Below, piece by piece: positions 391-3,177 of a stretch of 64,000 nucleotides of DNA. The position numbers and the translations under genes are program-made. The notes beneath the pieces are model-generated. The model saw only the letters and a list, made by a program, of their open reading frames with translations, had not been told where the DNA came from and did no database searches. Each line of letters opens with the position of its first letter. Within the stretch, counting starts at the first letter, position 1. The stretch comes from Cytophagales bacterium (GTDB lineage: Bacteria > Bacteroidota > Bacteroidia > Cytophagales > 172606-1), in contig JAUJMU010000003.1 of NCBI GenBank assembly GCA_030446715.1, forward strand, positions 1-64,000, in the 5' to 3' direction.

Positions 391-1248
391 ATGAAAAAGC
401 AGATTGTAAAAGTTGGCAACATTTCATGCGGTGCCGGTCAGTTGTTTCTGATTTCGGGTCCCTGCGTGATCGAAGAAGAAAGCATCATGATGCGCACAGC
501 CGAGAAACTGAAAGAAGTTTCGGAGCGGCTGCAGATTCCGGTGATTTTCAAGTCTTCCTACCAGAAAGACAACCGCAGCGCCCTGGGTTACTACACTGGT
601 CCGGGTTTGGAAAAAGGCCTCCAGATACTTGCCAGAGTGAAGCGGGAGTTTGGTTTTCCGGTGCTGTCGGACGTGCATTATCCGTCGCAGGTAGATGCCG
701 CCGCCGGGGTGCTGGATGTGATTCAGATTCCGGCCTATCTTTGCATGCAGACCGACCTGCTGGTGGCTGCCGCCAGAACCGGCCGCGTAATCAACATCAA
801 GCATGGTCAGTTCCTGGCCCCCGAAAACATGGGCAAGCCCGCCCAGAAAGCCGTTGATGCCGGCAACGATCAAATCATTCTGACGGAACGCGGCTACACG
901 TTCGGCTACAACGACCTCATCGTTGACCCGCGCAGCTTTTACCACATGAATCAGACGGGTTATCCGGTGGTGTTTGACGTTACGCATTCCATCCGCAAGT
1001 ACGGCATCCCGAGTGCCGACCCGATGGGAGGCGCAAGGCAATTCCTGCCGGTGCTGTCGCGGGCTGCCGTTGCTGCCGGAGTAGACGGTCTTTTTGTAGA
1101 GGTACACCCCGATCCGGTCAGTGCCCTCTGCGACGCCGCTAGCCAACTGAACATGACCGCGCTGGAGGAATTTCTGAAGCCGCTGCTGGAGATCCACGCC
1201 ATCGAGGTGAAGTACCGCAACCAGACCGTAGACGCCGTCATGTGCTGA
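391..1248 (+). CDS. kdsA: 3-deoxy-8-phosphooctulonate synthase (Kdo-8-P synthase)
   Basis: Cytosolic enzyme that condenses phosphoenolpyruvate with D-arabinose 5-phosphate to give Kdo 8-phosphate, the committed step to the inner-core sugar of LPS. The 285-residue length is typical. Family motifs are visible: the N-terminal SGPCVIEE segment, the FKSSYQKDNR loop, DVHYP, the NIKHGQFLAP stretch and the FDVTHSIRKYG / GGARQFLP region near the C-terminus. The reading frame stays open to a TTG at 364, but the ATG at 391 starts the family's normal N-terminus and is preferred. It heads a cluster with an aldolase-CBS protein and a KdsC-like phosphatase, so substrate supply, condensation and dephosphorylation of the Kdo pathway appear to be encoded together. 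Confidence 0.97.
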   Translation: MKKQIVKVGNISCGAGQLFLISGPCVIEEESIMMRTAEKLKEVSERLQIPVIFKSSYQKDNRSALGYYTGPGLEKGLQILARVKREFGFPVLSDVHYPSQVDAAAGVLDVIQIPAYLCMQTDLLVAAARTGRVINIKHGQFLAPENMGKPAQKAVDAGNDQIILTERGYTFGYNDLIVDPRSFYHMNQTGYPVVFDVTHSIRKYGIPSADPMGGARQFLPVLSRAAVAAGVDGLFVEVHPDPVSALCDAASQLNMTALEEFLKPLLEIHAIEVKYRNQTVDAVMC

Positions 1249-1293
1249 TAAAGGAAGCCGGTTACGGGCGTGGACGCCTGAATAAGTCCTGGT

Positions 1294-1332
1294 ACCAATA
1301 ACGAATAACCAGCAACGAACAACGAATAACCC
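1294..1332 (+). repeat. Heptad repeat array, ACGAATA/ACCAATA type
   Basis: Five consecutive 7-bp units (ACCAATA, ACGAATA, ACCAGCA, ACGAACA, ACGAATA) lie in the 90-bp spacer between kdsA and the aldolase-CBS gene. Complementary TTATTGG units occur near 17.6 kb and a related array near 54.76 kb. Confidence 0.75.
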
Positions 1333-1338
1333 ATTCCA

Positions 1339-2361
1339 ATGGAATTATACCTCGATTCAGCTGACCTGAAAGAAATAAAGGAAGCTTTTGAGCCAGGCTT
1401 TCTGGCCGGACTTACGACTACTCCCACCTTTATGCACCGCCACGGGGTAACCGACATTGACTCGCTCATCCTGGAGCTGGCCAAAATCGTTCCCGTATTG
1501 CAGGTAGAAGCCCTCGGCGAAACTTTGGACGAAATTTATAAGGAGGCTCACCGGCTACTGGATCTTGGTCTGGACCGGCAGCAAACTGTATTCAAAATTC
1601 CCGTTTCCCTGGAAGGCGTAAAGGCGTGCAAGCGTCTTACCAACGAAGGTATCATGATCAACGTGCACCTGGTGTACACGCTGCAGCAGGCGTACATGGC
1701 CATGACGGCCGGGGCCACTTACGTTTGTCCGCTGGTGGGCCGCCTGCAGGACCAGGGCCACGATGCCCTGGATCTGGTGGAACAGGCCGTAAATGCCGTA
1801 AACTATTACGGGTACAAGAGCAAGATCATGTTCTCTTCAGTGCGTCATACGGAGCACGTGCGCAACGCCATCAATATCGGCGTTCATACAGTGACGGTGC
1901 CGTACAAGATCATTAAAATGCTTACGGAGAACAACTTTACCACATTGGGCACGCAGCAGTTCTTTGAGCATACCCGCCTGATGACAATGCGGGTGCAGGA
2001 AATTGTGCGGGAAGTAAACCCGGTGGTAAGGGTAGGGGACGAAGTTTCGGACGCCATCCTGCACATGACCCGTTCGGGATTCGGCGCGGTAAGTGTGGTG
2101 GACGAGAAGGGCTTGCTGGTGGGGGTGTTCACCGACGGTGACCTGCGGCGGCAGCTGACCAAAAACGGCAAGTCTACACTGAGCATGAAGATGGCTGATT
2201 TTGATTACAACCCGCCGGTAACCATTGCCGCCAATGCCCTGCTCAACGAGGCGCATCAGCTTTTCAAGGAGAAGAAAGTGGATAATCTTCTGGTACTGGA
2301 TGGCGGCCAGCCCGTTGGCATGCTTGATATTCAGGACCTGGCAAAACTGGATTTGATTTGA
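1339..2361 (+). CDS. Transaldolase/FSA-like aldolase fused to a KdsD-type CBS pair; candidate arabinose-5-phosphate-forming enzyme
   Basis: 340 residues in two parts. Residues 1-225 match the fructose-6-phosphate aldolase/small transaldolase barrel: N-terminal MELYLDSADL, the LTTTPTF loop, the Schiff-base lysine segment VFKIPVSLEGVKA (Lys86) and AGATYVCPLVGRLQDQG. Residues about 228-340 form a CBS-domain pair containing GVFTDGDLRR, nearly identical to the GIFTDGDLRR of arabinose-5-phosphate isomerase KdsD, which has the same pair behind a SIS domain. Here the SIS domain is absent and an aldolase takes its place, between kdsA and a kdsC-like gene. Known: FSA-type aldolases accept glycolaldehyde as donor. 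Inference: with glyceraldehyde 3-phosphate this would give D-arabinose 5-phosphate, the KdsA substrate. Alternatively it is a CBS-regulated transaldolase in central metabolism. Domain calls are firm; the role is a hypothesis. Confidence 0.85.
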   Translation: MELYLDSADLKEIKEAFEPGFLAGLTTTPTFMHRHGVTDIDSLILELAKIVPVLQVEALGETLDEIYKEAHRLLDLGLDRQQTVFKIPVSLEGVKACKRLTNEGIMINVHLVYTLQQAYMAMTAGATYVCPLVGRLQDQGHDALDLVEQAVNAVNYYGYKSKIMFSSVRHTEHVRNAINIGVHTVTVPYKIIKMLTENNFTTLGTQQFFEHTRLMTMRVQEIVREVNPVVRVGDEVSDAILHMTRSGFGAVSVVDEKGLLVGVFTDGDLRRQLTKNGKSTLSMKMADFDYNPPVTIAANALLNEAHQLFKEKKVDNLLVLDGGQPVGMLDIQDLAKLDLI

Positions 2362-2475: not shown

Positions 2476-3177
2476 ATGGCTGACATCGAGAAAATATTTT
2501 CTGGTTTGGGGGGTGAGTTTCTCACCCCTTCTGCTTTGCTAGCTGGCAAAACCCGCACAATAAGAGCTTATTTATTCGATTGGGACGGGGTATTCAACGA
2601 CGGCATCAAGCATGACGAAGCCGGGAGCCCCTTCTCCGAAATCGAATCCATGGGGATTAACCTGCTGCGGTTCGGGCACTGGCTCCGCATGGGCAGCTTC
2701 CCGTTGACCGGCATTATCACCGGCGAAAACAACCGGGCCGCCCTGAAACTGGCGCAGCGGGAACATTTTGAAGCGGTTTATCTGAAGTTCAAGAATAAAA
2801 CTGAAGCCCTTAACCACCTCTCGGCCACGGCAGGGATCCGGCCGGCCGAGGTGGCTTTTGTGTTTGACGACGTGCTTGATCTGTCGGTGGCCAGCAAAGC
2901 CCAGCTCCGCTTTATGGTCCGGCGCACAGCAAGTCCATTGCTGATGCAGTACGTGAGAACCAACCGGCTGGCCGATTACATCACGGCACATTCGGGCAAT
3001 AACCACGCCGTGCGGGAGATCTGCGAGTTGCTGCTGGGCCTGTCGGGCATGTACGAGACAGTAGTGGGCAAGCGGTCTGCTTACGATGCCCAGTATACCC
3101 GCTACCTTGAAGCCCGTAACCAGATCCCCACAATGTTTTTTACCCGCGAGGCCGAAGGGATCATAGCCGGTGGCTAA
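2476..3177 (+). CDS. KdsC-like HAD phosphatase (putative Kdo-8-phosphate phosphatase)
   Basis: HAD-superfamily protein of the KdsC/C0 type, predicted to hydrolyse Kdo 8-phosphate to Kdo after KdsA. Motifs: nucleophile loop LFDWDGVFNDG (KdsC has DVDGVLTDG), ITGENN as motif II, a lysine in YLKFKNK as motif III, and VFDDVLDL as the acidic motif IV. At 233 residues it is longer than usual KdsC (about 170-190): it has about 35 extra N-terminal residues and a C-terminal tail of 50 or so residues without obvious similarity. It is the third gene of the kds cluster and separated from the aldolase-CBS gene only by a repeat array, so co-transcription is likely. The sugar-nucleotide-independent fold fits Kdo-8-P, but another phosphosugar cannot be excluded from sequence. 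Confidence 0.8.
   Translation: MADIEKIFSGLGGEFLTPSALLAGKTRTIRAYLFDWDGVFNDGIKHDEAGSPFSEIESMGINLLRFGHWLRMGSFPLTGIITGENNRAALKLAQREHFEAVYLKFKNKTEALNHLSATAGIRPAEVAFVFDDVLDLSVASKAQLRFMVRRTASPLLMQYVRTNRLADYITAHSGNNHAVREICELLLGLSGMYETVVGKRSAYDAQYTRYLEARNQIPTMFFTREAEGIIAGG

What the first reader, a model, noticed from the sequence alone, without database searches (positions are those of the whole stretch)
1339..2361. Aldolase domain carrying a KdsD-type CBS pair inside the Kdo operon: possible alternative arabinose-5-phosphate source
Kdo synthesis needs arabinose 5-phosphate, normally from KdsD (SIS + CBS pair). Here kdsA is followed by a protein with an FSA/transaldolase barrel (Schiff-base Lys86 retained) fused to a CBS pair with the KdsD hallmark GVFTDGDLRR, then by a KdsC-like phosphatase. 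A domain swap that keeps the regulatory module but replaces the isomerase fold suggests an aldol route, glycolaldehyde + glyceraldehyde 3-phosphate to arabinose 5-phosphate, or cleavage of a larger sugar phosphate. FSA-type enzymes are known to accept glycolaldehyde; the stereochemistry at C2 and C3 would be right. The link to Kdo is inference from position and CBS similarity.
Basis: partly seen in the sequence, partly recalled or inferred. Interest (0 to 1): 0.85.

Follow-up and report, generated by a model that had tools for sequence, protein, structure and literature searches.

The report
Stand-in enzyme for Kdo sugar precursor
Many Bacteroidota that lack the usual enzyme for making arabinose 5-phosphate, the starting sugar of the endotoxin component Kdo, carry in its place a rebuilt aldolase joined to that enzyme's regulatory domain and often sitting in the Kdo operon, which points to an undescribed route to a core outer-membrane sugar.

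Summary
Window 1339-2361 encodes one 340-aa protein: a transaldolase/FSA barrel with the Schiff-base lysine (K86) joined to a KdsD-type CBS pair, between kdsA and a variant KdsC-like phosphatase. It belongs to a large family (at least 546 genome-collection hits) in Bacteroidota and some Desulfobacterota, often in the operon kdsA-fusion-HAD, in several lineages with kdsB.

The key new evidence is distribution. In 59 genomes of the order, all 45 with a full kdsA have either the fusion or SIS-CBS KdsD: 19 fusion only, 24 KdsD only, 2 both, 0 neither. All 10 genomes with neither lack kdsA. Fusion genomes keep kdsB and nearly all keep waaA, so they should need arabinose 5-phosphate (A5P). One relative (G034) pairs a fusion-type kdsA with ordinary KdsD, so that KdsA should take A5P. 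The window's genome has both enzymes, but its KdsD lies beside a second kdsA and a KdsC in a polysaccharide-export locus.

Role as KdsD replacement: about 0.82. The chemistry is open: glycolaldehyde + G3P aldol (about 0.45), ribose-5-phosphate 2-epimerisation (about 0.3), or other. The active site is neither FSA nor transaldolase: N28T, T109H and Y/F131L in 97 of 97. Nothing was assayed. I found no published description.

The parts
391..1248 (+). kdsA, Kdo8P synthase, 'KDNRS' subtype with the metal-dependent type GPC motif (an alternative TTG start at 364 is possible)
   Evidence: (NF003543 351 bits, TIGR01362 337 bits, both over cut-off)
1339..2361 (+). Transaldolase/FSA-fold + CBS-pair fusion, the proposed A5P-forming enzyme (KdsD replacement)
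1339..1974 (+). Catalytic barrel, residues 1-212; D6, E57, K86, N108, R135, S167, R169 kept; T28, H110, C130, L132, S166 rebuilt
   Evidence: model; best Z 29.4 to transaldolase 3s0c
1594..1596 (+). Schiff-base lysine K86 codon
   Evidence: alignment to FsaA K85 and TAL, 97 of 97
1666..1668 (+). H110 codon, in place of FSA/TAL Thr109; candidate acid/base residue (inference)
   Evidence: 97 of 97 His in the family
1975..2358 (+). KdsD-type CBS pair, residues 213-340, motif FTDGDLRR
2476..3177 (+). Variant KdsC-like HAD phosphatase, presumed Kdo8P phosphatase
   Evidence: D35, D37, K108, D131, D132, D135 conserved in 68 of 68

Best explanation
The protein is the arabinose 5-phosphate-supplying enzyme of a Kdo operon and replaces the SIS-CBS isomerase KdsD. 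Its transaldolase-fold domain forms a Schiff base on Lys86, holds a sugar-5-phosphate through the kept phosphate site (R135, S167, R169), and delivers A5P to the adjacent KdsA. Kdo8P is then dephosphorylated by the variant HAD and activated by KdsB. The CBS pair, of the kind on KdsD, is proposed to sense a pathway end product (probably CMP-Kdo) and throttle the step. The most likely chemistry is aldol addition of glycolaldehyde (bound as Lys enamine) to D-glyceraldehyde 3-phosphate, whose FSA-type 2S,3R outcome is D-arabinose 5-phosphate. Shown: fusion, operon, complementary distribution, retained and changed residues. Inferred: A5P as product, donor substrate, CBS ligand. The confidence below is for the role; the aldol chemistry alone is about 0.45.
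For: 1) Complementarity in 59 genomes of the order: fusion in 24, KdsD over the TIGR00393 cut-off in 27, kdsA over cut-off in 45. The 45 split 19 fusion only, 24 KdsD only, 2 both, 0 neither; the 10 genomes with neither all lack kdsA. In 158 genomes of the phylum, the only three kdsA genomes without KdsD are G200 and G146 (both with the fusion) and G081. Fisher p 8.6e-11 for the order sample, 8.7e-23 for the 157 kdsA genomes combined (not corrected for descent, but at least seven families hold both states). 2) Operon: of 59 loci with full kdsA on the same strand, 54 have it within 135 bp upstream; 65 of 66 downstream HADs lie within 250 bp; kdsB-kdsA-fusion-HAD in Desulfobacterales, Crocinitomicaceae and others. 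3) Fusion genomes keep kdsB and waaA (missing only in G023). 4) G034 has fusion-type kdsA with KdsD and no fusion, so that KdsA type should use A5P. 5) The KdsD-type CBS pair is kept. 6) Chemistry precedent: FsaA makes A5P from glycolaldehyde + G3P (PMC9947464); transaldolase 3upb is a covalent A5P complex (title). 7) An ordinary transaldolase is also present in most of the fusion genomes, including this one, so the fusion is not the housekeeping one.
Against: No activity was measured. Free glycolaldehyde is normally scarce (own knowledge), and no dedicated source was found beside the gene. FSA's proton shuttle Tyr131 and donor residue Asn28 are replaced by Leu and Thr in all members, so the FSA mechanism cannot be transferred directly. 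The window's genome and a few others (6 found) hold both enzymes. The complementarity statistics ignore shared descent.
Confidence: 0.82

Rival explanations
1. Same role (A5P supply, KdsD replacement) but different chemistry: the Lys86 Schiff base forms on ribose 5-phosphate, and C2 is epimerised through an enamine or by retro-aldol/aldol without releasing glycolaldehyde, giving A5P. H110 and E57 would be the acid/base pair.
For: It removes the need for free glycolaldehyde. TalB F178Y gives both A5P and ribose 5-phosphate (PMC9947464), so both C2 epimers can be made on this scaffold. The water/proton relay Q59-T109-Y131 of FSA (PMC13259622) is replaced by E57-H110-L132 in 97 of 97, as expected if proton handling changed.
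Against: No known transaldolase-fold epimerase (own knowledge). D6, the usual aldol acid/base position, is invariant, which also fits plain aldol chemistry.
Confidence: 0.3
2. The fusion makes another aldose phosphate, and the co-evolved KdsA subtype builds a Kdo analogue from it.
For: Fusion-linked KdsA is a distinct subtype (KDNRS instead of KANR; mostly 327-345 vs 359-416 bits to TIGR01362).
Against: G034 pairs the same KdsA subtype with KdsD and no fusion. kdsB and waaA are present, and kdsA passes the Kdo8P-synthase equivalog cut-offs.
Confidence: 0.07
3. The protein is an auxiliary regulator or sugar-phosphate scavenger in the Kdo operon, and A5P comes from an unrecognised isomerase.
For: The catalytic pocket differs from every FSA/TAL compared here, and function is not shown.
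Against: Invariant K86, D6, E57 and phosphate site; presence of the fusion tracks absence of KdsD across families. No SIS-domain match to KpsF at E<=1e-10 in fusion-only genomes.
Confidence: 0.08
4. It is an ordinary transaldolase or F6P aldolase that happens to lie by kdsA.
For: The fold is clearly transaldolase (Z 29.4, 1.4 A over 194 residues).
Against: A separate ordinary transaldolase is in the same genome; the FSA equivalog cut-off is not met (160.7 vs 245.95); signature residues are replaced; linkage and complementarity with Kdo genes are conserved.
Confidence: 0.03

Closest known systems
KdsD/KpsF/GutQ D-arabinose 5-phosphate isomerase (SIS + CBS pair)
   Same: CBS pair with FTDGDLRR, place in the Kdo gene set, proposed product A5P, similar total length
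   Different: Catalytic SIS domain absent; replaced by a Schiff-base transaldolase-fold barrel
Fructose-6-phosphate aldolase FsaA (E. coli), which makes A5P from glycolaldehyde + G3P in vitro
   Same: Fold, Schiff-base Lys, Asp6, Arg134 and Ser166 of the phosphate site
   Different: N28T, Q59E, L107N, T109H, A129C, Y131L; CBS pair fused; a native role in Kdo supply is not known for FsaA
Small transaldolases (TM0295, T. acidophilum TAL, B. subtilis TAL)
   Same: Closest fold and sequence (about 35% identity), Glu57, Asn108, R135, S167, R169
   Different: N28T, T109H, S129C, F131L, A165S in the family; no CBS in those enzymes
Francisella tularensis transaldolase in covalent complex with A5P (PDB 3upb)
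   Same: Shows A5P can sit on the Schiff-base Lys of this fold
   Different: There A5P is a bound ligand in a stand-alone transaldolase without CBS
Dihydroneopterin aldolase/epimerase FolB (own knowledge, analogy only)
   Same: Retro-aldol/aldol epimerisation with a glycolaldehyde unit, as in the rival mechanism
   Different: Unrelated fold and pathway

Membership tests
TAL/FSA (class I aldolase) superfamily | TAL_FSA barrel over Pfam cut-off | tested here: met
   129.1 vs 27 bits; fold Z 29.4 to 3s0c
TAL/FSA (class I aldolase) superfamily | Schiff-base lysine | tested here: met
   K86, 97 of 97
Fructose-6-phosphate aldolase (TIGR00875) | Equivalog score cut-off | tested here: not met
   160.7 vs 245.95 bits
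Fructose-6-phosphate aldolase (TIGR00875) | Catalytic-water triad Q59-T109-Y131 | tested here: not met
   E57-H110-L132 in 97 of 97; triad described in PMC13259622
Transaldolase (small type) | Asn28, Thr109, Phe131 (FsaA numbering), as in the six transaldolases from related genomes | tested here: not met
   T28, H110, L132 in 97 of 97
KdsD/KpsF A5P isomerase | SIS isomerase domain | tested here: not met
   KpsF model matched only at 153-265 of 268, 65.2 vs 203.7 bits
KdsD/KpsF A5P isomerase | C-terminal CBS pair of KdsD type | tested here: met
   Best CBS matches are KpsF, GutQ, KdsD and 4o9k by sequence
KdsD/KpsF A5P isomerase | Supplies A5P | not testable with these tools
   Needs an enzyme assay; genomic evidence only

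The most novel reading that the evidence does not exclude
A native D-arabinose-5-phosphate aldolase: Kdo is built from glycolaldehyde and triose phosphate, not from ribulose 5-phosphate, by a dedicated, CBS-regulated transaldolase-fold enzyme that has repeatedly displaced KdsD in Bacteroidota and spread to Desulfobacterota.
Probability: 0.42. Interest if true: 0.9.

Novelty: new variant of a known kind. Interest (0 to 1): 0.78.

Why it matters
A5P formation is the entry to Kdo and so to lipopolysaccharide. The known solution is an SIS isomerase. This family would be an unrelated enzyme for that step, keeping only the regulatory module of the enzyme it replaced. It fills an apparent pathway gap in many genomes, may reveal native glycolaldehyde or epimerase chemistry on the transaldolase fold, and could give a naturally evolved A5P enzyme for synthetic carbon-conserving pathways that now use FsaA. 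The hypothesis is directly testable with one purified protein and one complementation.

Tried and rejected
Literature searches for A5P with transaldolase and CBS, kdsA/kdsD/transaldolase/Desulfobacter, a missing A5P isomerase, and transaldolase + CBS + kdsA gave no description; the library is open access only. A single-domain SIS isomerase as hidden KdsD was considered: the KpsF search at 1e-10 showed no SIS-part match in fusion-only genomes, only CBS-part matches, so it was rejected at that sensitivity. Retro-aldol release of A5P from a heptose or octulose phosphate was considered: an octulose source is not evident, and D-glycero-D-manno-heptose 7-phosphate would give ribose 5-phosphate (own stereochemical reasoning). 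Aldose-ketose isomerisation of Ru5P through a C2 imine was judged unlikely because it would leave an amino sugar (own reasoning). KdsD in four named fusion genomes has no kdsA beside it, and why those genomes hold both enzymes is unexplained.

Full report
Observation. The ORF at 1339-2361 is real, uninterrupted and has two parts: a TAL_FSA barrel (2.7e-37) and a CBS pair (8.5e-17). The CBS part is closest to the KpsF/GutQ/KdsD isomerases among 18,950 NCBIfam models, and to the A5P isomerase CBS pair 4o9k among PDB sequences. The structural comparison of the CBS pair alone gives many tied CBS domains (Z 13-16), with 4o9k, 3k2v and 3fna among them at the highest identities of the list, 28-30%, so the link rests on sequence. 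Upstream kdsA passes Kdo8P-synthase cut-offs. The downstream HAD is a divergent KdsC relative with a complete HAD catalytic set in 68 of 68 sequences.

Family and operon. Titles include Bacteroidota of several orders and some Desulfobacterota/Deltaproteobacteria; isolates include Raineya orbicola, Thermonema rossianum, Thermoflexibacter ruber and Xanthocytophaga flavus. The 80 kept loci are the most similar, so they are a biased sample. Of 59 with full-length kdsA on the same strand, 54 have it within 135 bp upstream; of 66 downstream HADs, 65 lie within 250 bp. Full kdsB-kdsA-fusion-HAD clusters occur, for example in L106, L143, L150, L157 and L177, and in G053 and G039. In Desulfobacterales the gene is sporadic (4 of 96), which fits lateral transfer. 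Some genomes have the fusion away from kdsA (for example Raineya and Thermoflexibacter).

Complementarity. This was the decisive test available. In 59 genomes of the order the fusion occurs in 24 and KdsD over cut-off in 27. Of the 45 genomes with kdsA over cut-off, 19 have the fusion only, 24 KdsD only, 2 both (G000 and G001) and 0 neither. All 10 genomes without either enzyme lack kdsA over cut-off. In a phylum-wide draw of 158 genomes the fusion is rare (3), KdsD common (115), and the only kdsA genomes without KdsD are G200 and G146, which have the fusion, and G081, which has neither. Families f1, f8, f10, f18, f19, f20 and f24 each hold both states. Fisher tests are far below chance but treat genomes as independent. 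Of 22 named fusion genomes, partly overlapping the first sample, 18 lack KdsD and 4 have both. The KpsF search should also show a single-domain SIS isomerase; none appeared in fusion-only genomes.

The window's own genome. G000 has KdsD at C10:148917-149738, next to a second kdsA (150221-150985), a KdsC over cut-off (151438-151890), a Wzt/Wzm-like ABC exporter and nucleotide-sugar enzymes. This looks like an acquired surface-polysaccharide locus with its own Kdo genes (inference). G001 is similar in having KdsD and the second kdsA within 6 kb. So KdsD being present here does not argue against the role of the fusion at the window's locus.

Same substrate. Fusion-linked kdsA is a subtype (KDNRS motif). 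G034 has this subtype in a kdsB-HAD-kdsA cluster (sequence) with KdsD elsewhere and no fusion. The simplest reading is that both KdsA subtypes take A5P. Fusion genomes keep kdsB and waaA (missing in G023 only), so Kdo is very probably made and used.

Active site. Against FsaA and six transaldolases, 97 of 97 fusions keep D6, E (Q59 position; E in transaldolases), K86, N108, R135, S167 and R169; and 97 of 97 have T for N28, H for T109, L for Y/F131 and S for A165, while 91 have C at 129 (6 T). In FsaA, D6 and N28 recognise the donor, Q59-T109-Y131 hold the catalytic water, and Y131 is the main proton shuttle (PMC13259622). So the phosphate and Schiff-base machinery is kept, while the donor end and proton relay are rebuilt in one conserved way. 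That fits a dedicated new substrate or donor. An aldose such as A5P lacks the ketose C1 hydroxymethyl group, so changes at that end are expected (inference).

Chemistry. E. coli FsaA adds glycolaldehyde to G3P to give A5P, and TalB F178Y gives A5P plus ribose 5-phosphate (PMC9947464). PDB entry 3upb is titled as a transaldolase in covalent complex with A5P. The fold can therefore hold and make A5P. Glycolaldehyde supply is the weak point of the aldol route; epimerisation of ribose 5-phosphate on the same lysine avoids it. I put aldol addition first because it has direct precedent, and keep epimerisation as a close rival. The CBS ligand being CMP-Kdo is from memory of the KdsD CBS structures (the 4o9k title is cut) and was not tested.

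Novelty. No paper in the searched open-access library describes the fusion or an alternative A5P source for Kdo. Subscription papers were not searched.

Noticed in passing
G013, G015, G019, G031, G046 (for example G015:C1:343422-344623); G033:C58 and G048:C3: The first five genomes have no kdsA, KdsD or fusion but still have kdsB, waaA and a KdsC-type HAD next to a ~334-aa DAHP/Kdo8P-synthase-like protein (about 106-132 bits to TIGR01362). In G048 and G033 (G033 does have the fusion) a similar protein lies beside kdsB. Possibly a second, DAHP-synthase-derived ulosonate route.
   Followed up: no
window 2476-3177: The variant KdsC-like HAD stands in for canonical KdsC in most fusion genomes and also occurs in some KdsD genomes (G026, G034), so this pathway has a second non-standard enzyme.
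   Followed up: partly
G000:C10:140000-158000 (L180): Second kdsA + KdsD + KdsC in an ABC-export polysaccharide locus with GDP-mannose dehydratase-like genes.
   Followed up: partly
window 1285-1335 and 2362-2475: Intergenic gaps hold short near-repeats (AACGAATAACC-like; CTTATGACTT-like), separating the operon genes by about 90 and 114 bases.
   Followed up: no
L012 (G002:C138) fusion: One fusion copy is frame-broken (1 TGA; split match) in a 75% complete genome, probably an assembly error or decay.
   Followed up: no
G081:C1:171431-172189 (L187): KdsA with the KANR motif in a genome with neither KdsD nor fusion; its A5P source is unexplained.
   Followed up: no
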